Assembly: GCF_025449215.1 (NCBI RefSeq) | Contig: NZ_CP104900.1 | Coordinates: 2,108,001 to 2,172,000 of the forward strand | Source of the DNA: Shewanella seohaensis | GTDB lineage: Bacteria; Pseudomonadota; Gammaproteobacteria; Enterobacterales; Shewanellaceae | Direction: 5' to 3' | DNA: 64,000 bases | Shown here: positions 24,617 through 41,544 of the stretch, piece after piece | How positions within the stretch are numbered: the first letter of the stretch is position 1 | Layout: every line of letters starts with the position of its first letter | The notes under the pieces: model-generated | Databases searched by the model: none | What the model was told of the DNA's origin: nothing | Seen by the model: only the letters and a program-made list of their open reading frames with translations | Program-made: the position numbers and the translations under genes

Positions 24617-27306
24617 CTACACAATCGACTTACGCGAGCGAAAATGATTTAAGGGGTCTTGGCAATAACTGGCCTTAACCTGCTGCAACATTTGGTAATT
24701 TTGCCCAAAGTAGCGTGCGGTCGGGATGGTATTGTCCTTAAAGCTGATAAAGGCGCCAGCGCTATTGGCAATGCAGGCATCGCGGCAGGTGTCTATCCAG
24801 TCGAGCGCCTTATTCACTCGGGGATACACTGAGTTCACCTGCATTAAGGCTTGCTCTTGGAGTTCACTATTCCACCATGCTTGATACTGAATAATGTAGG
24901 CCTGCTCCTTGTAGGGGAAGGCGCTCTGGCTTTTTTGTACTTCACCAAGCGTGCGATAAAAATCACCGGCAATTGCGCTTAGGGTGACATAGGTAAACAA
25001 GCCTAATTGCCGATTGCCATCAATCAGTTGGGGTGAGGTGAGGCTGTCGATAAGCGCAATATGCCCCTGTTTTAGCCCCTGTGCATGGGCCAAGCGTGAT
25101 GTCACCCTATGGGGCGCGGGTCTGAGTAGATCCTGTGAATGTTGGCGCTGATTTTTATAGAGTTGTATGTCCTTATCATTAAGCAGTTCAGCCAATCTAT
25201 GGTTTAAGACGGGTTGTAAATCCTGAATCGCTTCGCGGTTCCAGCTCTCCATCAATTCGTCGCCATAGGATTGAGTTAAGCCGCCCATGGCCGCCATTTG
25301 CACCCGGTTAGGCTTTAAACCGACTTCACTAAACTGGGCCTTAATAAAGTGCGCAAGGCTTGCGGGATTGCCCTCCCAATAGCCGTACATGATGCAGTTA
25401 TGTTTAGCCTCTTGGGGCGCCTGCACCACAGTGTTTAATGGTGGTTTTACCCCTTGCAACAGGGCGGGTTTGGCTTGAATTTTAAGGTTAGTCCCGAGCA
25501 AACAAGGCAGATTATCGGCCAGAATAATCTGCTCCCAACGCTCCAATAATCTTAAGGTCGGGGTGGTTTCGCGCAGCTGTTGGCTGTCCTTCTGATACGG
25601 GTTCCACTCCAGCTCAAATTTCAACAGGCTTGGGGGCAGGGCAAAGGTCTGCACAAAAAACGGGTGACAATACCGTAGCTTAGGCCACCGCCGCCCTTGA
25701 GCGCCCAAAGGAGTTCGGGCTTATTGGCCGCCGAGACCACTTGGGTTTCACCTATGCCCAACACGATTTCCGCCTGCACTAAGCTTTCGCAGCACATGCC
25801 GTATTTGCGGCACCAAGGTCCCCAACCGCCGCCCATAATAAAGCCCGCCAAGGCATGGGAGGCGCTGGTGCTGTGGGGCAGCATTAAGCCCTTTTGCGCC
25901 AGATAACTGGTTAAGGCCTGCATGGTACAACCTGGCCCAATGGCGACAATGCCACTGATGGGGTCGAGCTCTATGCTGTTCATCGAGGATAAGTCGATCA
26001 CTATGCTATTGGTTTCGCCACTTTCCCCTTCGTGATCATGGCCGCTAGAGCGCACGCTAATGGCGAGGTGATAATCGACCGCCGTCTTATAGACCAGTTT
26101 TACCTCTTGGCTGCTGCGGCATTTGATGATGGCAAGGGGCTTTTTTTGCAAGCGGCGATTAAACAGTTGGCAGGCTTTTTCGTAGGCCAACATCTGTTGT
26201 CCCGTGCTCACCCAAAAATCCTGCTCTGCATAATACTGGCCATCAGTAATGATATGGTCGCTGGCAATATGGCTGCGCACTTCGTTAATAAAGCGCATAA
26301 AATGCTTAGCTTGTCGGGTGACTATATTTTCACTGATGCGGATCTCGGCCGTTAATCGGCTCGAGGTCGACTGGCTGATAAAACAATCAAATTCCAGTTC
26401 ATTGCTCAGTTGTAAATCAATGTGCGAGCGATGGGGCGTGAGGGATTTTAAAATATCGAAGCTCAGTTTGATATCGGCACTTTCTTTCGCCTGATAATTC
26501 GCCTTATAAATAAAATGTGGCCAATTATCACTGCTGGATTCAATCATATACGCGCAGCGTTCATGGGCGGGAATAATACTGGGTAGCTGCTTGTTAAAGT
26601 GGTTGCTGTTTAAATTCTGCTTATTAAAACTATATTCGGTTTCATTAAAAATAATGAGCATGACTTCCTGTCTTGCCAATTGGGTTGGCATTAATTGGAG
26701 TTCATGCTTTGCATGTTTTTTAGGATAAATATATAAATTACTGTCAATCAGCGCCGCTTGTTGGTGTGGATGTAAATAACAATCTAAAATTTCGGCTTCG
26801 GTTAAACAGGTTTCAATCAAATTAATATTAACTATCTCACCATCAAAATCCGTAGTGGTTTGCGTGGCAAATTTTAATTTAGCCTCATCCGTTAAGGGGA
26901 TTGAATGCTGCTGTAAATGGATTTCATCACCGTCGATAAAACAGCTTAATTCATGGTATTGGTAGGTAATGGATAATAAATGCCAATAACCATCATTTAA
27001 GCCGCCTAAGGTGGATATAGTGTCAATCTGTAATAACTGGCTATTAACTCGAATCTCAATATGGCCAAGTGGCGTAACTTGTACGATAAAGCTGGGATAA
27101 TTGGCTTGGTCGCAATACTGAAATACAGTCCCGCCCTGCAGGGTTTTCACCCACGCCTGAAAAGTAAATACATCGAGTGTGTGACTGAGGGGCAATGGCG
27201 TTAAGGAAAGTGAATTCATCGAGGCGGTTGTCTCTTGGCTCTGTGCTTGAGCCACAGTGTTGATTAACGTATCCGAAGCGCTATGGGGTGTTTTCGGCGT
27301 TTTCAT
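24617..27306 (-). CDS. LamG-like plus FAD-binding (BBE-type) oxidoreductase fusion, frameshifted
   Basis: About 896 residues when repaired. Start chosen at 27306, eight bases behind AAGGA. Residues about 20-190 look like a concanavalin/LamG jelly roll (GTVFQYCDQ, GYWHLLSITYQYHELSCFIDG). A middle region is unassigned. Then comes a PCMH/FAD_binding_4 domain with VRSSGHDHEGESG, whose His is the likely covalent flavin ligand, and GFIMGGGWGPWCRKYGM. The second flavin-linking Cys of bicovalent enzymes is not at its usual place. The frame breaks at the A-run 25655-25660 (plus strand), where one more A restores GIVTRFFVQTFALP. The C-terminal part has a substrate domain ending near DPLNHFRSRKSIV. No signal peptide is evident. 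Substrate unknown, probably an oligosaccharide or aromatic alcohol. Confidence 0.78.
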
Positions 27307-27366
27307 CGGCAACATCCTTGTTTAATTTCATTCCCTGACAATTGCTTAAGCTGCAATCGTGGCGAC

Positions 27367-28386
27367 CTACAGTGAGGCGTTTATCCGGTCACGACCATCG
27401 GCCTTGGCGCGGTAAAGCGCGGTATCGGCGGCGCACACCATGGCGAGTGAGGTACGGAACTGGCCATTGACTTCACTGGCAATCCCTTGGCTGGCGCTTA
27501 CCGAGACATAATCCCTGAGTCCTTGGTCAGTAAAACGAATATTATTAATCCCTTGCTGAATTTTTTGCGCTATGGTCAGCGCCATTTTGGCATTGTGATT
27601 AGGCAGGATCAGCGCAAACTCTTCGCCGCCGTAACGGGCCGCAAGGCCGATGTCGATAGGCACAATAGTGGCGATCACTTTGGCAATTTTTCTAAGGCAT
27701 TCATCACCTTGGATATGACCGAACTGATCATTAAACACCTTAAAATAATCCACATCGATAATGACTACGCTGATAGGGCGTAGTTTGGCGGTGCATTCTT
27801 CCCAGTGTTGTTGCAGCATTTCATCAAAATAGCGACGGTTCGCCAGTTGGGTGAGGGAGTCGGTGGCAGCCAACTTACGCAGCTTTTGGTTTTCCGCCTT
27901 ATGCTGAGTTAAATCGTGCATTACCATCACAAACACAGGTTCATGGCTGGGAATATAAGAGATAGACAACTCCACATCTTTGGCCTTGCCAGAGGCGCAG
28001 ATCAGCGTAGTTTCCTGCGCTGGGTGCTGCACGGGGTGACCGCAGTTGGTGCCTAATTGCACATCGTGACTCAGAAGATTGTCATAGCGCGCTTGATGAT
28101 GTTCGGTCAAAAAATTGCGCCAGTCTTGGCCCTTTAAAGTCGCCTGCGGGCAATCGAGCAGCTCGGCACTGCGTTGATTGCACGAACGGATAAAGCCATT
28201 GGCATTCACTAAGAGCACGGCTTCGGTTAAATGTTGAATAAAGAGCTCAATGGTCTCGAGGGACGAATGCTCGAAAAAGTTCAGCGGTAACTCGGCACTC
28301 TTTGCAGGTTGAGTTGCGGGCAATACAGCATCATCGACAATTGATAAGGCTGGTTGTTGGCGAGCCAGTTTCGGTGAGTTTGTCAT
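27367..28386 (-). CDS. PAS-GGDEF diguanylate cyclase
   Basis: The 339-residue cytoplasmic protein has a PAS-like sensor (about residues 45-165: [20 protein letters not shown], then the ...MVMHDLTQ end) and a GGDEF domain whose active site reads ARYGGEEF, predicting synthesis of cyclic di-GMP. The upstream inhibitory RxxD site is absent at its normal position five residues before GGEEF, so product feedback is probably weak. It lies upstream of the FAD oxidase gene on the same strand with 60 bases between. Confidence 0.9.
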
Positions 28387-28652
28387 TGTTATCTTTCTCC
28401 GTGAACTTTAATCATCTGCGCTAGGCGCTTTTCTGAGGATGACTTTATTCTGGCGGAAGAAAAGATACCTTCTGCTTACCTTCTGGTTTAATTGATTGAT
28501 TTTAAATGTTTTAAGTTTTACCTTCTGAGTCGTTTTGTCTGCGATTAGGAGCGTGGTTAGCTTGGGGCTTGCTTACATCTCGCAAAATTTGGGCTAAATA
28601 GCCCCTAATCTGAAGCCTCAAGATTGAGTCGAATACTTGTTATTGGGTCAAT

Positions 28653-29699
28653 TTAATGCAATGTAAGTCCATTAGTTTGCTCGGGATGTAGTGCTTGGCT
28701 ATGGGATTTTCCTCGACACCATTTGCCACCTTGCTTGTGTTTAAATGCACACATTGCATCCCATCGACCGCTTATGCCACTGTACTGTCGGCGAAACTCC
28801 TTGGCTGAAAGTAACCAGGCATCGGATGCTATGCCTAATTCATTAAGTAACTTAGGTCGCTGATTATCAATAAAGCCCTTTTTATCATGGCGGATAGCGC
28901 GGCCGGTCCAATCGATAAGGTCAAGATAATCGGCAAAATGAAAGGGGATGCCCGTTTGCTGATGGAGATGCGTTGCACCATCAAATTTTACGAGGGGTTT
29001 ATGTGGTAATGGCTGAGTGTTATCTACAGGGGTTGGGTTGACAGTGGTGTGACGCTGTTAGATGAAAGTGCATTCAGACGTTCTTGAATCGATGTAAAAT
29101 CAGAGGATTGCAAAGAATCGGCAATGCCAGCTCGAATAGGATTTAAATCCACATACATCATGCAGGCTAGTAAGGCTTGTTCATCTAGCAAAGCTTGGGA
29201 TTTAAAACGACCTTCCCAGAAGGCGCCTTTGCACTCATCTTCTCGATTGGCTTTACGGGCAATCTCTTCATTTAAGCAACGCATAAACCAAGATATGCTG
29301 GATAAGCGCTCATGCCATTCGACAATTAAGGCATCGAGTAACATGCGTTCTCCGTCGATTAATGCATCACCATTCATATACTTAGTGGCAATGGCATGGC
29401 CTTTAGTGATTTGGCACCAGCGACTGATAATATCTTTTTGCGTTAACGATTTAGCCTTCTCGACGTCAATTTTAAGCACTAAATGATAGTGATTGCTCAT
29501 CACCGCATAAGCGCAAATATCAATACAAAATATTGCAGACAAGGCTTTGATTTTATCGACAATCCAGCTACGTCGATGCTCATAACTGCGCCCTGTGAGT
29601 TTATCTTCACCACACAAAAAGCCCTTCTGACACAGCGATTAATCACATGATAGAAGGGGTTGTATTGGCATCGATAAGCATTCTTCTGGCCGAGGTCAT
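28653..29699 (-). CDS. REP-associated tyrosine transposase (RAYT), three frameshifts
   Basis: About 349 residues when repaired. It has the Y1 transposase core: TPFYHVINRCVRRAF, the HUH motif in MSNHYHLVLK, the GAFWEGRFKSQAL stretch and the MYVDLNPIRAGI segment carrying the expected catalytic Tyr. A C-terminal extension reads WLLSAKEFRRQYSGISGRWD. RAYTs nick single-stranded REP hairpins and are thought to spread them. Breaks are at G-runs 29029-29032 and 29656-29659 and A-run 29616-29620, each one base short; the adjacent partial copy has the full runs at the last two. Four REP-type repeats lie next to the 5' end. Confidence 0.88.
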
Positions 29700-29786
29700 G
29701 ACTCGCTCCAAACAGACAAGGTGAAGATAATCTAAAGACTAGTAGAAGAGGGGACAAAGCACAAAAGACATGGCTGTCCCTACTTA
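29698..29786. repeat. REP-type repeat, copy 1
   Basis: An 89-base unit that starts at the RAYT start codon and ends in the complementary pair GGGACA / TGTCCC enclosing about 19 bases. On the minus strand it begins AAGTAGGGACAG, showing the GTAG tetranucleotide that RAYTs recognise beside REP hairpins. Confidence 0.8.
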
Positions 29787-29791
29787 TTATC

Positions 29792-29830
29792 CCTCGACAC
29801 CATTTGCCACCTTGCTTGTGTTTAAATGCA
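29792..29830. repeat. Duplicated 39-base piece of the RAYT 3' end
   Basis: This stretch is identical to 28711-28749 inside the RAYT C-terminal coding region. It joins REP copies 1 and 2, evidence that the cluster grew by local duplication. Confidence 0.85.
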
Positions 29831-29918
29831 ATGACTCGCTCCAAACAGACAAGGTGAAGATAATCTAAAGACGAGTAGAAGAGGGGACAAAGCACAAAAG
29901 ACATGGCTGTCCCCACTT
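29831..29918. repeat. REP-type repeat, copy 2
   Basis: Same unit as at 29698, with GGGGACA / TGTCCCC arms and one substitution (ACGAG for ACTAG). It flanks the truncated second RAYT copy. Confidence 0.8.
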
Positions 29919-29923
29919 GGTTT

Positions 29924-30214
29924 TTGGCACCAGCGACTGATAATATCTTTTTGCGTTAACGATTTAGCCTTCTCGACGTCAATTTTAAGCACTAAATGAT
30001 AGTGATTGCTCATCACCGCATAAGCGCAAATATCAATACAAAATATCGCAGATAAAGCTTTGATTTTACCGACAATCCAGCCACGTCGATGCTCATAACT
30101 GCGCCCTGAGAGTTTATCTTCACCACACAAAAAAGCCCTTCTGACACAGCGATTAATCACATGATAGAAGGGGGTTGTATTGGCATCGATAAGCATTCTT
30201 CTGGCCGAGGTCAT
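29924..30214 (-). pseudogene. Truncated 5' fragment of a second RAYT gene
   Basis: These 291 bases repeat the RAYT from its start codon (30214) to just past the HUH motif, matching 29411-29699 with a few substitutions. Translation gives MTSARRMLIDANTTPFYHVI and runs in frame through SNHYHLVLK to SRWCQ, then leaves homology at the REP repeat. The catalytic Tyr region is absent, so it cannot transpose. Its G-run (30170-30174) and A-run (30129-30134) are one base longer than in the full copy, where they are in frame. Confidence 0.88.
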
Positions 30215-30302
30215 GACTCGCTCCAAACAGACAAGGTGAAGATAATCTAAAGACTAGTAGAAGAGGGGACAAAGCACAAAAAGACATGGCTGTCCCCACT
30301 TA
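30213..30302. repeat. REP-type repeat, copy 3
   Basis: Same unit overlapping the start codon of the truncated RAYT, with GGGGACA / TGTCCCC arms and one extra A in the loop (AAAAAG). Confidence 0.8.
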
Positions 30303-30325
30303 TGAGCATTCTTCTTGCCGAGGTC

Positions 30326-30414
30326 ATGACTCGCTCCAAACAGACAAGGTGAAGATAATCTAAAGACGAGTAGAAGAGGGGACAAAGCACAAAAGACATG
30401 GCTGTCCCTACTTA
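30326..30414. repeat. REP-type repeat, copy 4
   Basis: Last unit, preceded by a repeat of the RAYT 5' sequence GAGCATTCTTCTTGCCGAGG. It ends 15 bases before the stop of the DP-EP-like gene. Confidence 0.8.
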
Positions 30415-30428
30415 TTCTGTAATAAAAA

Positions 30429-30803
30429 TTAATTTGGTTTGTTAATGATTTGTGGGTCCGGACTTAATACCAATAGAGTATTGGTGGTATTGCTTAATAC
30501 AAATTGGAACTTTGTAGTACCAGGCGTTCTGTCGAGGTCGACAAGTTGTACTAACATACCATCGCTGCTGATGGTGACCGCATCGACAACTTCATCGAAT
30601 GGGGTCACAAAACCCACACCGACAAATTTTAGCCCTTTACCGGTTTGGTCATTCAGCAAATAGGTTACAGTGCTAGCTTGAGTGATGGTGACATCACCTG
30701 CGCATTGCTCGCCGCTGGCATCAGTATAGATAAATACTGGTTCACCATTTTCTAAGGTAACATTGACTTTAACAAATTGAGCTGCACCTTGTGGTGTTAT
30801 CAT
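30429..30803 (-). CDS. DP-EP-like small protein of unknown function
   Basis: A 124-residue, beta-rich protein without signal peptide or membrane helix. The sequence resembles the small DP-EP (DUF1888) family known mostly from Shewanella; this is from memory. Segments such as [37 protein letters not shown] and [21 protein letters not shown] suggest an immunoglobulin-like sandwich; the DP near the C-terminus may be the family's namesake. It lies 19 bases behind the large STAND regulator on the same strand, so they are very likely co-transcribed. Confidence 0.65.
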
Positions 30804-30822
30804 TTTGACTTTCCTCTTTGAA

Positions 30823-33800
30823 TTACAGTTGTTTAATTGGGGTGTTTTTAATATCTAATTTTTCTAAACAGCGTTCCGAATCTAAATAAGGGGTTACTAT
30901 TTGAGGGTTTTGGTCTTTTTCTATTAAAGGTTTTAATAATTCTATTGTTTGGTTACATAACTTAAAAGCAGTATTTTTATTTCCGTTTTCCAAGTATCTT
31001 ATTGCAAGATTTACGTTTGTTTTTGCAACTCCAATGAGATAATCCTTGTCGTCAGGAAAGTTGTTGGCTAATTTTTTAAATATGACATTAGACTCTGTTA
31101 GCTCGTTATAACCGTTATTAACATTGCTGTTTTTTTCTTTGATTGCAATAGCTAATAAAACATTGGCTCGTAAATGCTCTCTTTTTACTTCGCTGATTGA
31201 TACTAAGTCCGTATCAAGTGTATCTAAAAGAGATTTAGAGGTTTCGTTAACTCTAGAGTCATTAACTAAAATGTTCAAAAGAAATATTTTTGTGCGAATA
31301 TGAAATAAATCTCTTTTCCATACTTCATTCCCTGAATCCATGGCTAATGATTTTTCAATAATTTCTTTTGCTAGTAATAGTTTATCGAGGCCAGATGTAA
31401 ACTCTCCCTTATATTCAAGTAACTCTGCTAATCTGCCTAGAGTACTGGCTAATCTATCTCTCATATAGGCATCATTTTGATTTAGAGAGTTGAGTAATTG
31501 ATTTTGAGTTGCTTCTTGGAGTTTGATAGCAGTATCGAGATCGCCAAGGGAGGTTAATGCACTTGCTAACCAAGAACGTGTATCGGCTACATCGGCAATT
31601 AGTTGGCTATCTTCGGGGGCTTTGGCCAGTGCCAATAGCTTTAATCGTAACGACTCCTCAAAATCTTGCTGTGCTTTAGCAAACTCCTGTTGTTTCATCG
31701 AAACAGAACCCAAGGTGTTATGGGCATAGGATAGCTCCATCAGCGCATCTTTATCCTCTGGCGCTAGGGCATACATGGTTTGGCTATAGGCTAAGTACTG
31801 CTCGAAGAAGGGGCGCGATGCGGCCCAATCACTCACATCATATTTAAGCTGGCCCAACCAAAAGGCATTGGCGCCCAAGGTTTTTAGCAGGGCTAAGTTG
31901 TCTGGCTGCAATTCGAGCAGCGGCAGCATTTTTCCTGCGCGGCGAGCAGGGCGCTGCGGGCTTCATCGATTTTATTGCGTGAATAGGCGACTTCACCCAT
32001 GGCCTCTAGGGTTTGGCCGTGTTGGAAGCGGGCGTCGAAGCTTAAGTACTTCTCATCGTCTTGGCTGGAGAAATCCGTGAAATATTCCAGTGCTTTATTG
32101 CTGATCCCATCGAGTAAGTCCATCCGGCCGATGCCGCGCATCTTATCGGCGAAGTCACCCACCATAAACCCGAGCAGATCTTCGGCGGCGAGGCGTTTTT
32201 GCTGGGCCAGCTTCTCGGCTTCGATACTGCGAGCACTCATAATGACCGAGGTTAAGGTGAGTACGCACAGCAGGGCGACTGTGATGCGCCTCGTCCAGCG
32301 CAGCATAGTGGCGCGTTTACTGGAGGCGGCAATAAAGTCGGTTTCTCGCTCGTCTAAGTCAAACAAGGGGTTTTGCCTAAGGCTTTGGGCTTCTTTTAAG
32401 GGTTTCCCCTCGGCCAGCAAATAGGCGCTGTGTTTAGCCTCGCTGAGCCAGCGCTGGGATAAATGCTGTAGTCGGCTCTTAATGCTAAGGCTGTCGTTAT
32501 GTTCGCTGATCCACGCCGTCGCCCTTGGCCAGCGGCGCAGCAGAGCTTCGTGGGCGATGCTAAAACAGGGTTCACCATTTTGCAGATGGGACACAAATAA
32601 GCGGCTATCGACCATGGCTTGCACTAGGGCGGTTTCGGCCGCGCTTTGCAATTGCGACCAGCGGGCGGTGCGGCTGGTGATGGATTTTTCATCCTCTCGC
32701 AGGGTGACTAACAGGGACAAAATCCGCGGCAGACTGGCTTTTTCGGCCTCGGTTAAATGGGAGATGGCCTGCTCGGCATTTTTACCGATAGCGCCTTCGA
32801 TACCGCCCAAGGTGCGATACACAGAAACCAATAGTTTGTCATCGTCGCTGCGTTGTAAGTACAGCGCCTGCAAGGTGTATTGCAGCATAGGCAGCGCATC
32901 TGGGTTGCTGGCGGCATCGCTACAGAGCATTTCATCGAGCGGCATGGCGGTGTCGCTATCGATTTCCCAAGTTAAATTGGCGGCAACGGCTGGCAGACGG
33001 ATCATCTGCAACAGTTCGGTGCGAGTGGGAGGCGCTAAGTCGAAATGGGCGCCACGCGCTTTGCCTGCCATCAGGCTGGGGTAATTGACCAGCAACGGAT
33101 AAAAGTCGTTGCGACAGGCACTTAAAATCAACACCGCATGGGAAGTGGCAAGGCGCTCTAACAGCTCGATAAAGGTGCTGCGCTCGGCGTCGCTAAACAG
33201 CGGCGATGATAATAAGACCTCTAATCTGTCGATAAATAAGGCAAAGCGTGGCGTAGCATAGGTCTGATTTTTAAGACTTTGTTTGCATATATCGACAATG
33301 CTCTGTGGATCTTGCTCAAGCTTGGCGGCAAGTGTATCGGCGCTCATTCCCTCAAAGACTGGGGTGTCGTTTAGCTCCCAGTCGAGCATGGCGCTAGCCA
33401 AATCGGTGAGCAGTTGTCCCTTGCTGACATCGGCAAAATCGAGGCTGCTATAGGCCACAACGCCGACGCCATTAAAGCCATTGGCGGCCATGAGGTTAGG
33501 CAATACACCAGCATTAATTAAGGAGGATTTACCGCTACCACTGGGGCCTAAAATTAAGCAGAAGGCGCGGCCAAACTGGATTTGTTGGCTAATGCGATTC
33601 AGCAGCGTGCTAATTTGTTCGCTGCGGCCGAAGAACACGTCGGCATAGTTGGCGCTGTAAGCTTGCAGGCCCGGAAACGGTGAGCCACCTTGCCAGGTCT
33701 GTGGCGTGGCGCTGGCCTCGTGGCCGACGGGAAAACGCACCTCGGCTAAGGTGCGATAACCGCGTTTGCGGATGGTCTCAATGTAACGGGATTCGGTGGC

Positions 33801-34046
33801 GCTATCGCCTAAGGCGCGACGTAACTGGTTGATAATTTTGTGCAGTGGATTATCACCTGTGTCGACCCCCGGCCAGCAATGGCTGACAATCTCGTCGCTG
33901 CTGACCACTTCACCGGCGTTTTGGCAGAGAAATAACAACACATCCATCGCCTTAGGCTCAAGCTGTTTAACTTGCTTACCCAGAAGCAGGCTGTTGGCGC
34001 TGGGATTAACTTGCCATTCACCCAAAAAAAATGTGCTGTCACTCAT
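30823..34046 (-). CDS. Winged-helix / STAND NTPase / TM / TPR signalling protein, frameshifted
   Basis: About 1074 residues from ATG 34046. Residues 1-105 form an OmpR/CadC-type winged helix ([29 protein letters not shown]). Residues 125-450 are an nSTAND1-type NTPase with FFGRSEQI, P-loop GPSGSGKS (167-174) and Walker-B-like [12 protein letters not shown] single membrane helix lies at about 588-605 ([16 protein letters not shown]). The remainder is TPR repeats, expected on the periplasmic side ([20 protein letters not shown]). The frame breaks at 31929-31933 (plus-strand T-run); a sixth T joins the two parts at [12 protein letters not shown]. It looks like a one-component membrane regulator that senses by TPR or NTPase. 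The downstream DP-EP-like gene is its likely partner. Targets unknown. Confidence 0.82.
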
Positions 34047-34231
34047 AGGATTTCCATTGCTTGAGCATCGACTCAGGCGGGAAATAGGGAGCCGCGAGTC
34101 GCTGTTATTTTTATTGTTAGCGCGTTTTGTACATTGAGTGTCATCATTTCGCATGACGTCAAAACATTGACATTATGCCTAGACCCTTTGTTATTTAAAA
34201 GGAATAACCCTAGGTAATCAATGTAAATTTT

Positions 34232-34252
34232 ATATCGTCATTGTGACGATAT
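34232..34252. promoter_or_regulatory. Perfect 9-bp inverted repeat upstream of the STAND regulator
   Basis: ATATCGTCA and TGACGATAT flank a TTG centre, 186 bases before the regulator's start. It could be the operator for self-regulation by the winged helix. No experimental motif is known to me. Confidence 0.4.
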
Positions 34253-34364: not shown

Positions 34365-34391
34365 AAAAAAGAGTGCCCAAGGTGGGCACTC
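34365..34391 (-). terminator. Terminator of the lipase/DUF4785 pair
   Basis: On the minus strand GAGTGCCCA and TGGGCACTC pair over CCT and are followed by six T, 48 bases past the stop of the DUF4785-like gene. With the palindrome above it explains most of the 392-base gap 34047-34438. Confidence 0.9.
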
Positions 34392-39397: not shown

Positions 39398-40434
39398 GTG
39401 CTCAACAGGCTTCAGCAGGGATATCAATCGCTGGGACATCTGCGGCAGAAACATCAAGCGCTGCTTCTGAGTTTGCTATCGAAACCCGCGGCATGACCCG
39501 CGCCTTTGGCGGCATCAATGCGGTCGAAGATCTCGATTTAGCTATCCCTAAGGGCACGATTTATGGATTTTTAGGCCCCAATGGTTGCGGTAAATCGACC
39601 TCCATTCGGATGTTGACTGGGCTGCTTAGCCCGACCTCGGGGGATATTCGGGTGCTGGGCGAAACCTTGCCCGGCGCCGAGGAAAAACTGCGCCGCCGCA
39701 TTGGCTATATGACGCAAAAATTTTCCCTCTACGACAATTTGTCGGTGCGGGAAAACCTCGAGTTTGTGGCACAAATTTATGGGCTGAATCGTCGCCACAC
39801 CAAGGCGCGTTTGGCCGAGTTATTAAGCCTTTACGATTTGGCGGGGCGCGAGAAGCAAATGGCGGGCTCCATGAGTGGCGGGCAAAAGCAGCGTTTAGCC
39901 TTAGCCGCCGCGACCTTACATCACCCCGAACTGTTATTTCTCGATGAGCCGACGTCGGCGGTGGACCCTGAAAATCGCCGCGAGTTTTGGGAGCGGCTGT
40001 TCGACCTCTGTGCCCAAGGCACCACGATTTTAGTCTCGACCCACTATATGGATGAGGCCGAGCGTTGCCATGGTCTCGCGATTTTAGAGCGCGGGATAAA
40101 ACGCGCCGATGGCTCACCGCAACAACTCATGGCGGCCATGGGCGCGCGGGTGATTGAAGTGTCGGGGGAGGATTTACGCAAGCTTAAACAATCGCTTATC
40201 AGCGACGCCAACGTGTTATCGGCGGCGCAGATTGGCAGTCGTTTACGGGTATTGGTACAAAGTTCGATTGCAGATCCGCTGGCTTGGTTAAGCCCAAGGG
40301 TCGCGGGGCGGGCGCTGACCGAAGTGCGCCCAAGCCTTGAGGATGTGTTTGTGACTTGCACGGGCGGACGTGCCCAGCTAACGCCGCCAAACGGCAGTCA
40401 GGCCACGACAGTGGAGGCTCAAGATGCTACGTAG
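39394..40434 (+). CDS. ABC-2 exporter ATP-binding protein
   Basis: The 346-residue ATPase has Walker A GPNGCGKST (around residue 67), signature MSGGQKQRLALA, Walker B ELLFLDEPTSAVDP and the switch His in LVSTHYMDEAERC. The C-terminal 60 residues are typical of ABC-2 (DrrA/YbhF-like) subunits. E. coli YbhF has two ATPase domains; this one has one. The gene overlaps the adaptor gene upstream and the permease gene downstream. Confidence 0.92.
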   Translation: MSAQQASAGISIAGTSAAETSSAASEFAIETRGMTRAFGGINAVEDLDLAIPKGTIYGFLGPNGCGKSTSIRMLTGLLSPTSGDIRVLGETLPGAEEKLRRRIGYMTQKFSLYDNLSVRENLEFVAQIYGLNRRHTKARLAELLSLYDLAGREKQMAGSMSGGQKQRLALAAATLHHPELLFLDEPTSAVDPENRREFWERLFDLCAQGTTILVSTHYMDEAERCHGLAILERGIKRADGSPQQLMAAMGARVIEVSGEDLRKLKQSLISDANVLSAAQIGSRLRVLVQSSIADPLAWLSPRVAGRALTEVRPSLEDVFVTCTGGRAQLTPPNGSQATTVEAQDAT

Positions 40435-41544
40435 AATTTGGGCCGTAGTGGTCAAAGAACTCAGGCAGTTATCGCGGGATCGCATGACCTTCGGCATGAT
40501 AGTGATGATCCCCTTAGTGCAGTTGATGCTGTTTGGCTATGCCATCAACACCGATGCGCGCCATTTGCCCGCAGGTTTAGTGAATTTAAGCGACTCCGCC
40601 TATAGCCGCGCCTTAGTCAAGGCGGTAGAAGCGACTCAAGTCGTTGATTTTAAACATCGGTATTTGAGCGCCGCCGAGGCGGATGCGGCCATCACTCGGG
40701 GCGAAGTGAAAGCCGTGCTGTATTTAGGCGCCGATCTCGACGAGCGTTTAGTGCGACATCCCGCCTTTGCGGGGCAGGCCTATTTTGCCGAGCCCGTGGG
40801 GCAATGGTTGGTGGATGGCTCGGATACTGTGGTCGCTTCTACCATTCGCAGTTTAAGGCAAATGCCGCTGGATGAAATTGCGGGCAGGGCGGTCAAATCG
40901 AATCCCCCAGTTTTGAGGTGGTGCAGTACTTTAACCCTGAGCAGCGTTCTGTGGTGAATATCGTCCCCGGCCTCTTGGGGGTCATTTTGACTATGACCAT
41001 GGTGATGTTTACCTCGGCCGCGATTGTGCGCGAGCGAGAGCAGGGCAATATGGAGTTTTTAATCACTACGCCGGTGAGGCCGCTGGAGCTAATGCTTGGG
41101 AAAATCACCCCTTATGTATTAGTGGGCTTTGTGCAATTGGCCATTATTCTCACCGCCGGACATTTACTGTTTGCCGTGCCGATCCGCGGCGGTTTGGATT
41201 CGATTGCGCTGGCGGCCATGTTGTTTATCTGCGCCAGTTTGACCTTAGGCCTAGTGATTTCGACCATAGCGAAAACCCAGTTACAGTCGATGCAGATGAC
41301 GGTGTTTATCCTGCTGCCGTCGATTCTGTTGTCGGGCTTTATGTTCCCCTACGAGGCCATGCCCGTGGCGGCGCAGTGGATTGCCGAGGCGTTACCCGCG
41401 ACGCACTTTATGCGCATGTCCCGCGCGATTGTGCTGAGGGATGCCGAGGTGAGTGACTTGCAATTTGATGCGCTGTGGATGATTGGCTTTACCTGCCTAG
41501 GGCTGCTGGTGGCAAGCCTGCGATTCTCTAAACGTTTGGATTAA
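40424..41544 (+). CDS. ABC-2 type permease, frameshifted
   Basis: About 373 residues when repaired. The N-terminal helix and VVKELRQLSRDRMTFGMIVMIP stretch are typical of YbhS/YbhR-like permeases, followed by a periplasmic loop (to about residue 165) and five C-terminal helices with NIVPGLLGVILTMTMVM, REREQGNMEFLITTP and the LLSGFMFPYEAMP signature. The frame breaks at the C-run 40904-40908; one more C gives SNPPSFEVVQYFNPEQRS. Only one permease gene is present, whereas ybhFSR systems have two; a homodimer or a second subunit elsewhere would be needed. Confidence 0.88.

What the first reader, a model, noticed from the sequence alone, without database searches (positions are those of the whole stretch)
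30429..34252. Membrane winged-helix/STAND/TPR regulator with DP-EP partner: candidate undescribed signalling system
One polypeptide joins a CadC-like DNA-binding domain, an nSTAND1 NTPase, one membrane helix and a periplasmic TPR array. Such a protein could bind DNA while anchored in the membrane, with the NTPase as a switch. It is followed after 19 bases by a small beta-rich DP-EP-like protein, which may be a ligand or effector. A perfect 9-bp palindrome at 34232-34252 is a candidate operator. STAND proteins often serve in defence or developmental switches.
Basis: partly seen in the sequence, partly recalled or inferred. Interest (0 to 1): 0.75.

Follow-up and report, generated by a model that had tools for sequence, protein, structure and literature searches.

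The report
Variable membrane switch with self-cutting partner
A bacterial membrane protein that looks like an NTPase-driven gene switch is encoded next to a small self-cutting protein and usually near a maker of the signal c-di-GMP, and its outward-facing end differs sharply between otherwise near-identical strains, which suggests a recognition system for which we found no published description.

Summary
Relatives and a database copy (P0021) have one frame, and two neighbouring genes are split likewise, so assembly error is likely. The 'DP-EP-like' protein is DP-EP itself, close to SO1698 of S. oneidensis, a solved self-cleaving protein. REG and DP-EP co-occur in 54 of 97 Shewanella genomes and were adjacent in all 72 loci examined from genomes holding both. 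They are adjacent in 13 of 13 DP-EP genomes outside the genus, and Massilia has a DP-EP-like gene beside its REG. The palindrome is kept in only 2 of 12 upstream regions compared. Best reading: a membrane-anchored STAND transcription switch with a diversifying periplasmic sensor, a self-cleaving partner and perhaps a c-di-GMP output. The ligand is unknown; kin or phage recognition is possible but unproven.

The parts
31893..34154 (-). Regulator (REG), 5' part as it stands in this assembly (753 aa; likely true start at 34046)
   Evidence: most relatives match from about residue 25-41 on; P0021 starts at the Met encoded at 34046
33753..33968 (-). OmpR/CadC-type winged-helix DNA-binding domain
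   Evidence: PF00486, E 2.6e-16; CadC structure 5ju7, E 7.5e-15
32430..33680 (-). nSTAND1 NTPase with intact Walker A (GPSGSGKS)
   Evidence: PF20703, E 6.8e-89; Walker A conserved
32217..32288 (-). predicted single transmembrane helix, N-terminus in the cytoplasm (position carried over from L063)
   Evidence: hydropathy; mean flank charge +3.4 before and -0.5 after
30823..31929 (-). periplasmic TPR part of REG, in another frame in this assembly (368 aa)
30823..31500 (-). hypervariable AT-rich C-terminal segment (GC 31%)
30429..30803 (-). DP-EP protein (124 aa), SO1698 relative, no obvious signal peptide
   Evidence: PF08985; PDB 3n55 and mutants
30453..30458 (-). Asp116-Pro117, the self-cleavage site by homology to SO1698
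   Evidence: 67 of 68 proteins; invariant in A1 and A4; several deposited chains end at residue 116
27367..28386 (-). PAS-GGDEF diguanylate cyclase (GGEEF), third member of the module
28387..30428 (-). variable spacer between DP-EP and the cyclase, holding an IS200-like transposase-like ORF and a second, similar ORF in this genome; not part of the module's core
   Evidence: ORFs 29024-29617 and 29822-30226; Y1_Tnp for the first, E 0.0013, below cut-off
34171..34231 (-). conserved promoter-like block upstream of REG, a better candidate regulatory site than the palindrome
   Evidence: alignment of 13 upstream regions, window included; the L176 extract begins inside the block
34232..34252 (.). 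9-bp palindrome with 3-base spacer: perfect only in the window and L175 of 12 regions compared

Best explanation
REG and DP-EP form a conserved, closely spaced gene pair, in the order-level sample usually joined by a diguanylate cyclase (DGC). REG is a transmembrane transcription regulator in which a STAND NTPase sits between the cytoplasmic winged helix and the membrane helix, and a periplasmic TPR array acts as a diversifying sensor. Proposed working: the TPR array recognises a ligand that differs between strains; binding is passed through the membrane helix and lets the STAND domain exchange nucleotide and oligomerise, which brings the winged helices together on DNA to control the module and the DGC, and so c-di-GMP. 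DP-EP is the dedicated partner of the periplasmic half. Its Asp-Pro self-cleavage probably works as a one-shot switch or maturation step that arms it as ligand or modulator. SHOWN here by sequence: architecture, co-conservation, adjacency, DP motif, hypervariability, and joint exchange of REG C-terminus with DP-EP in one clear case plus co-variation across the genus. Self-cleavage itself is others' work on SO1698. INFERRED: ligand recognition, oligomerisation, DNA targets, c-di-GMP output, and any role of cleavage in signalling.
For: 97 Shewanella genomes: REG 56, DP-EP 55, DGC 55, all three 54, none 40. DP-EP directly downstream of REG in 72 of 72 loci taken from genomes holding both and in 13 of 13 non-Shewanella DP-EP genomes; a DGC homologue within about 5 kb in 11 of those 13, convergent in 3. 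REG with a DP-EP-like gene in Massilia and in the family of G463, fold match to SO1698. Asp-Pro, Walker A (but a variant in L139) and GGEEF kept. C-terminal identity 31% against 96% (N) and 95% (DGC) in ten close genomes; lower C than N in five clades (C 31-56%, N 95-98%). GC 27-35% against 53-54%. dS raised in REG_C and DP-EP over REG_N and DGC in six of seven pairs. L176 and L179 share a REG_C/DP-EP segment with DP-EP more alike than the backbone. DP-EP co-varies with residues 661-1074 and little with 1-600, and not with DGC. TM and charge.
Against: The short DP-EP has no obvious signal peptide, so it should be cytoplasmic while the half of REG it co-varies with is predicted periplasmic. Co-variation may only reflect DNA linkage: the genes are adjacent and can move as one tract. 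DP-EP is under purifying selection (dN/dS 0.08 or less). A DGC was not found near the pair in 2 of 13 non-Shewanella genomes and lies about 9 kb away in G037 and about 50 kb away in G063. Lys98, the residue of the deposited K98A mutant, is kept in only 27 of 68. 40 of 97 Shewanella genomes lack all three genes, so the module is dispensable. Co-occurrence is not corrected for phylogeny. No REG structure was obtained.
Confidence: 0.5

Rival explanations
1. Self/non-self (kin) recognition (a special case of the best explanation): DP-EP, perhaps its exported form or a released peptide, is the allotype-specific ligand of the REG C-terminus of neighbouring cells, and the output sets c-di-GMP and thus aggregation.
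For: Old alleles with high dS, in one clear case shared together with DP-EP; co-variation with the periplasmic half; long DP-EP copies with signal-like N-termini in 9 of 55 DP-EP genomes of the genus sample.
Against: Short DP-EP has no obvious export signal and is far less variable (78%) than REG_C (31%). No orphan tips were found in the fetched loci.
Confidence: 0.25
2. Phage or toxin sensor (also a special case): like bacterial NLR/Avs proteins, the variable TPR end recognises an invader in the envelope, and the winged helix plus c-di-GMP replace the usual killing domain.
For: STAND plus variable C-terminal repeats is the plan of antiviral STAND proteins (PMC10907252, section 12); patchy presence.
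Against: PADLOC: only short P-loop and marginal Cmr5 matches. No killing domain in the Pfam scan. DP-EP not found on phage or plasmid records by tblastn.
Confidence: 0.2
3. Ordinary environmental sensor whose C-terminus merely drifts; DP-EP varies only because it lies on the exchanged tract.
For: dN/dS in REG_C below 1 (0.14-0.53, near saturation) and 0.08 or less in DP-EP; co-variation starts at residues 601-660 and peaks at 661-850, as a tract would allow; REG residues 741-830 are as variable as DP-EP (0.78 each).
Against: Drift does not raise dS several-fold in one gene end while REG_N and DGC stay low, nor explain a GC of 27-35%; some C-terminal alleles have their best match in distant species (4 of 30).
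Confidence: 0.25
4. DP-EP is a protease that cuts REG and frees its cytoplasmic part (regulated proteolysis).
For: PDB titles call SO1698 an aspartic peptidase.
Against: The most conserved residues centre on its own Asp-Pro site; no cleavage of another protein is known to me, and I could not read the enzyme paper.
Confidence: 0.12
5. REG is naturally made as two proteins by programmed frameshifting or internal start at 31929.
For: Two overlapping ORFs; ATG with a purine-rich stretch before it.
Against: Single frame in relatives and in P0021; two other genes nearby are split in the same assembly.
Confidence: 0.03

Closest known systems
DP-EP family (DUF1888), SO1698 of Shewanella oneidensis, PDB 3n55, 3njf-3njn
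   Same: Same family as the window protein (best E 1.6e-67); Asp116-Pro117 conserved. L064, which I take to be S. oneidensis, encodes the crystallised sequence directly downstream of a REG.
   Different: I found no printed account of its gene context (library searches; the enzyme paper itself is not held). No function in the cell is known to me.
CadC/ToxR-type transmembrane transcription regulators
   Same: OmpR-type winged helix in the cytoplasm, one TM helix, periplasmic sensor; CadC also has a tetratricopeptide part (PMC9214523, section 9).
   Different: A STAND NTPase sits between winged helix and membrane. A survey of such regulators holds none of the words STAND, NTPase, TPR or tetratricopeptide in its main text (PMC10269533, word search only). 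NCBIfam CadC score 65.6 against a cut-off of 400.
Co-component systems (VtrA/VtrC, ToxR/ToxS)
   Same: Membrane transcription factor and a small adjacent, often overlapping, fast-evolving partner; conserved Cys near the C-terminus (PMC9214523: abstract, passages, section 9).
   Different: Partner there is a periplasmic lipocalin-like protein; here it is a self-cleaving beta-sandwich without an obvious signal peptide, and the sensor end is the most variable part.
STAND/NLR-type antiviral proteins (Avs, DGR-diversified nSTAND1 proteins)
   Same: STAND NTPase with a variable C-terminal sensor (PMC10907252, section 12).
   Different: DNA-binding instead of killing domain; membrane-spanning; no reverse-transcriptase match in the window's genome; variation looks like allele exchange.
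SARP/AfsR- and MalT-type STAND transcription factors (recalled)
   Same: STAND NTPase plus DNA binding plus repeats.
   Different: Those are soluble, without DP-EP or a hypervariable periplasmic end (recalled, not tested).

Membership tests
DP-EP family / SO1698 self-cleaving endopeptidase | PF08985 profile match | tested here: met
   131.9 bits, cut-off 25
DP-EP family / SO1698 self-cleaving endopeptidase | Asp-Pro cleavage site near the C-terminus | tested here: met
   D116-P117; 67 of 68 proteins of the family
DP-EP family / SO1698 self-cleaving endopeptidase | Self-cleavage activity | not testable with these tools
   known for SO1698 from others' work (recalled; a Shewanella self-cleaving endopeptidase is named in PMC11655445, passages)
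DP-EP family, Massilia partner (L171:9270-9656) | Profile match | tested here: not met
   no Pfam family at E up to 10
DP-EP family, Massilia partner (L171:9270-9656) | Fold and Asp-Pro motif | tested here: met
   12 best PDB matches all SO1698, E 7.7e-9 to 2.2e-5; motif in A4. The model's alignment held DP-EP proteins, so this is not fully independent.
CadC/ToxR-type transmembrane transcription regulators | OmpR-type winged helix at the N-terminus | tested here: met
CadC/ToxR-type transmembrane transcription regulators | One TM helix with C-terminus outside | tested here: met
   hydropathy only: one segment in 52 of 72 proteins; 18 score a second segment (in the nine printed it lies at residues 287-325, inside the NTPase); 2 score none
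CadC itself | NCBIfam CadC equivalog score | tested here: not met
   65.6 bits against 400
Co-component systems | Adjacent or overlapping small partner gene | tested here: met
Co-component systems | Partner periplasmic and lipocalin-like | tested here: not met
   DP-EP fold; no signal peptide by a crude hydropathy measure
Antiviral STAND (Avs/NLR-like) | STAND NTPase with Walker A | tested here: met
Antiviral STAND (Avs/NLR-like) | Variable C-terminal repeat sensor | tested here: met
Antiviral STAND (Avs/NLR-like) | Killing effector domain or match to a known defence model | tested here: not met
   PADLOC gave only short P-loop and marginal Cmr5 matches
DGR-diversified sensors | Reverse transcriptase in the genome | tested here: not met
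   0 PF00078 matches in the window's genome
Polymorphic-toxin-like tip exchange | Displaced orphan tips downstream | tested here: not met
   fetched loci only; the extra matches were further DP-EP copies

The most novel reading that the evidence does not exclude
An NLR-like bacterial recognition receptor that is itself a membrane-anchored transcription factor: strain-specific periplasmic alleles, exchanged as cassettes with a self-cleaving partner that serves as cognate ligand or covalent switch, report kin or invader encounters through DNA binding and c-di-GMP.
Probability: 0.3. Interest if true: 0.92.

Novelty: new variant of a known kind. Interest (0 to 1): 0.78.

Why it matters
It gives a solved but, as far as I know, functionally unplaced self-cleaving protein a constant gene partner and a likely pathway, links STAND NTPases to membrane transcription factors and perhaps c-di-GMP, and shows NLR-like diversification of a putative receptor in Shewanella and its relatives. 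It can be tested in Shewanella oneidensis MR-1.

Tried and rejected
Operator palindrome: not generally conserved; perfect in the window and L175, imperfect in L063 and L065, gone in 8 of 12. Natural split of REG: unlikely. DGR: no RVT_1. Orphan cassettes: none in the fetched loci. Plasmid or phage carriage: no tblastn match of DP-EP. Known defence system: short P-loop and marginal Cmr5 matches only. DP-EP Lys98 cross-link (recalled) as the conserved function: Lys98 in 27 of 68. Hitchhiking versus co-adaptation of DP-EP and REG: not separated; the correlation does not rise towards DP-EP (peak 661-850), but saturation at the C-terminus could cause that. The genome-contig scan with REG was swamped by a generic P-loop pattern, so named genomes are few. 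REG structure was not obtained. Literature searches that gave no paper on this module; one search found one paper that uses the SO1698 self-cleaving sequence as a tool (passages); one search found one mention of so1699 (passage).
Full report
OBSERVATION. On the minus strand, ORF 31893-34154 (753 aa) carries Trans_reg_C (residues 63-134) and nSTAND1 (159-575); ORF 30823-31929 (368 aa) carries TPRs; ORF 30429-30803 (124 aa) is DP-EP. The first two ORFs overlap in different frames, so in this assembly the regulator (REG) is not one polypeptide. Of 13 relatives 86-99% identical over the matched part, 12 have an open frame of 1073-1117 aa and one (983 aa) runs into a contig end; two of the 13 matches contain a stop codon. 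Database protein P0021 (1074 aa) runs from MSDSTFF (start at 34046) to the last residues of the second ORF. Of 13 MR-4 ORFs (120 aa or more, from the fetched stretch) that align to window 23.6-43.1 kb, three are split between frames in the window: REG, an 899-aa neighbour and a 373-aa neighbour. I therefore read the split as probable assembly error; a very recent mutation remains possible. Later whole-length work on the window type uses P0021.

WHAT DP-EP IS. The window protein matches eight distinct PDB sequences of SO1698 (best E 1.6e-67), titled aspartic peptidase of S. oneidensis with mutants Y26F, D37A, K98A, S114A, P115A, D116A, P117A and Q118A. Several deposited chains end at residue 116. 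Self-cleavage at Asp116-Pro117 is others' work (Osipiuk et al. 2012, content recalled; cited in PMC11655445, seen as passages; the paper is not held). A profile search of 56 fetched contexts and the window gave 68 DP-EP proteins: Asp116 and Pro117 are kept in 67, the exception being a truncated third copy; Asn121 in 66; Ser114 in 64; Lys98 in 27. In 23 divergent proteins D-P are the only invariant columns.

THE MODULE. In a sample of 97 Shewanella genomes REG was found in 56 (E <= 1e-30), DP-EP in 55 and a close homologue of the PAS-GGDEF cyclase at 27367-28386 in 55 (E <= 1e-40, a cut-off I chose; at most 22 candidates were scored per genome). All three occur in 54, none in 40. The exceptions are G038 and G029, where REG lies at a contig end, and G074, with a DP-EP remnant. 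Fisher p is 1e-23 to 1e-26, not corrected for phylogeny. Contexts show REG, DP-EP, then usually the cyclase on the same strand, while upstream neighbours differ between groups of species; the cyclase is about 9 kb away in G037 and about 50 kb in G063, and on another contig in G029, G054 and G058. In 72 of 72 loci (71 fetched plus the window), all taken from genomes already known to hold both genes, a DP-EP starts within -60 to +400 bases of the REG stop. Left out: L095 (REG in pieces, DP-EP shortened), L096-L098 (not both genes), L139 and L168. REG to DP-EP gaps are commonly -4 to 50 bases, with extremes of -47 and 247. The cyclases found in those loci have GGEEF, and REG keeps Walker A apart from a variant in L139. 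In nine of the 55 DP-EP genomes one or two further DP-EP genes (open frames of about 229-317 aa) with a signal-like N-terminus follow.

OUTSIDE SHEWANELLA. A class sample of 369 genomes held DP-EP only in the window genome and G444. An order sample of 394 held it in 35, of which 13 lie outside the genus. In all 13, DP-EP directly follows a REG of 1037-1114 aa; a cyclase homologue (similarity only, orthology not tested) lies within about 5 kb in 11, convergent in three. Comparing (388 genomes, at most two candidates scored per genome): the 34 genomes with a strong REG match (over 600 bits, one of them in two pieces) all have DP-EP. Of the 10 weaker ones, G649 has DP-EP and G639 a sub-threshold one (15.1 bits against a cut-off of 25). 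I fetched five of the other eight (L164-L167, L169) and a second REG-like gene of G758 (L170), 950-982 aa: no DP-EP was detected beside them; G792, G768 and G629 were not fetched. Named genera with DP-EP proteins include Shewanella, Rheinheimera, Arsukibacterium, Alishewanella, Alteromonas, Aliiglaciecola and a Kangiella MAG. In Massilia sp. BJB1822 a REG (38% identity) overlaps by one base a 128-aa ORF with a DPEISN motif. It has no Pfam match, but its model (pLDDT 89) has the 12 SO1698 chains as its 12 best PDB matches (TM about 0.60-0.72); the alignment behind the model contained DP-EP proteins, so this is not fully independent. A class search with the Massilia REG found 3 of 369 genomes, among them G463, which has a DP-EP-like ORF (CDPQVVC). 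In the family of G463, 18 of 177 genomes have such a REG. Of 19 REG ORFs read there, 15 have a downstream ORF with DP in its last 40 residues; 14 of these read DP[QE][VM], the fifteenth (L216) is doubtful; the four without are L210, L211, L215 and L217. No chance control was run for that motif.

HYPERVARIABLE END. In ten close genomes, mean pairwise identity is 92-100% over residues 51-700 but 27-32% over residues 901-1074. Means: REG_N 0.96, residues 741-830 0.78, residues 850 to the end 0.31, DP-EP 0.78, cyclase 0.95. Among 72 database proteins that I aligned (of 120 listed, of 1197 found; 90% clusters, so skewed to diversity), 22, P0021 included, have an N-part at least 96% identical to P0021; their C-parts average 0.31 and fall into 13 groups at 70%. 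P0021 and the MR-7 protein P0022 are nearly identical up to about residue 830 and then different. In five clades of 4 to 25 proteins, one of them Rheinheimera, N averages 0.95-0.98 and C 0.31-0.56. GC is 53-54% in REG_N and 27-35% in REG_C in all ten genomes. Flanking genes compared with four relatives are 95-100% (lipase-like), 80-97% (DUF4785) and 77-99.6% (TetR, one match partial) identical, so the upstream flank varies too, but far less. In seven pairs, dS is 0.17-0.38 in REG_N and 0.12-0.58 in the cyclase; in the six pairs of different alleles it is 1.6 or more in REG_C (one pair saturated) and 0.82-1.48 in DP-EP; in the seventh pair, L176/L179, REG_C gives 0.19 and DP-EP 0.04 against 0.22 in REG_N. 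L176 and L179 share REG residues 701-840 and DP-EP at 99% DNA identity, above their REG_N (95%), with REG_C at 94%; the 200 bases after DP-EP are 56% identical, but that stretch is poorly conserved in all eight pairs compared. For 30 of 30 close proteins the best C-terminal match among 87 distant proteins beats the median match among close ones (a lenient test); in 4 of 30 it beats the best close match. This fits maintenance and exchange of old alleles better than reverse-transcriptase mutation.

CO-VARIATION. Across 56 Shewanella loci DP-EP distances follow REG_C distances after removing REG_N (partial r 0.48; 0 of 500 permutations as high; in the ten close genomes 0.49, 1 of 500), whereas REG_C-cyclase gives 0.04 and DP-EP-cyclase -0.12. 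By window the partial r is -0.20 to 0.19 in residues 1-600, 0.38 at 601-660, 0.63-0.65 at 661-850, then 0.57 and 0.46. The step falls at the membrane helix. Because the genes adjoin and can move together, linkage can explain this; the decline towards DP-EP argues mildly against that, but saturation could cause it.

TOPOLOGY. Hydropathy gives one segment in 52 of 72 proteins, a second hit in 18 (in the nine printed it lies at residues 287-325, within the NTPase) and none in 2; mean net charge in the 52 is +3.4 before and -0.5 after. Two invariant cysteines lie near the C-terminus, as a periplasmic disulfide would have. The first 45 residues of 72 short DP-EPs peak at a mean hydropathy of 0.95 (highest 1.78) against 1.71-2.58 in 13 long ones, a crude measure. 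This leaves a puzzle: the partner appears cytoplasmic, the co-varying half periplasmic.

MECHANISM. See Best explanation. The closest working analogies are co-component systems (PMC9214523: abstract, passages, section 9) and antiviral STAND proteins with variable C-terminal sensors (PMC10907252: abstract and section 12); it fails a tested feature of each and is filed under neither. PMC7159879 (passages) on NTP-dependent conflict systems has no occurrence of nSTAND or Shewanella in its main text. In MR-1 'so1699 (transcriptional regulator)' is listed among genes that ArcA appears to repress (PMC2262068, passage); that so1699 is REG is my inference from its number next to SO1698.

LIMITS. Profiles are not corrected for phylogeny; REG structure prediction failed; DNA binding, NTPase, cleavage and c-di-GMP activity are untested; genome samples are subsets of each rank.

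Noticed in passing
24617-27315 (-): LamG plus FAD_binding_4 gene (899 aa and intact in MR-4) is also split between frames in this assembly.
   Followed up: partly
40424-41544 (+): A 373-aa MR-4 gene is split into two overlapping ORFs in the window.
   Followed up: partly
28387-30428: Repeated stretches with IS200-like transposase-like ORFs between DP-EP and the cyclase; ORFs of the same cluster lie near DP-EP in several relatives.
   Followed up: partly
L065:10021-10785, L070:11833-12588, L135:9227-9733: DP-EP copies with a signal-like N-terminus, most with an extra N-terminal region of about 110 aa of unknown fold, encoded after the short DP-EP.
   Followed up: partly
L164, L165, L166, L167, L169, L170: REG-like STAND proteins (950-982 aa) without a detected DP-EP beside them; the first four match REG from the winged helix on, the last two only from the NTPase on.
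   Followed up: partly
L095 (G055): REG broken into pieces and DP-EP shortened: the module appears to be decaying in this species.
   Followed up: no
L125 (G063): The cyclase homologue lies about 50 kb from the REG-DP-EP pair.
   Followed up: no
34171-34231: Strongly conserved promoter-like block upstream of REG.
   Followed up: partly
34371-34391: A second perfect palindrome (9-base arms, 3-base spacer), kept in L063 and L065, terminator-like in position between genes.
   Followed up: no
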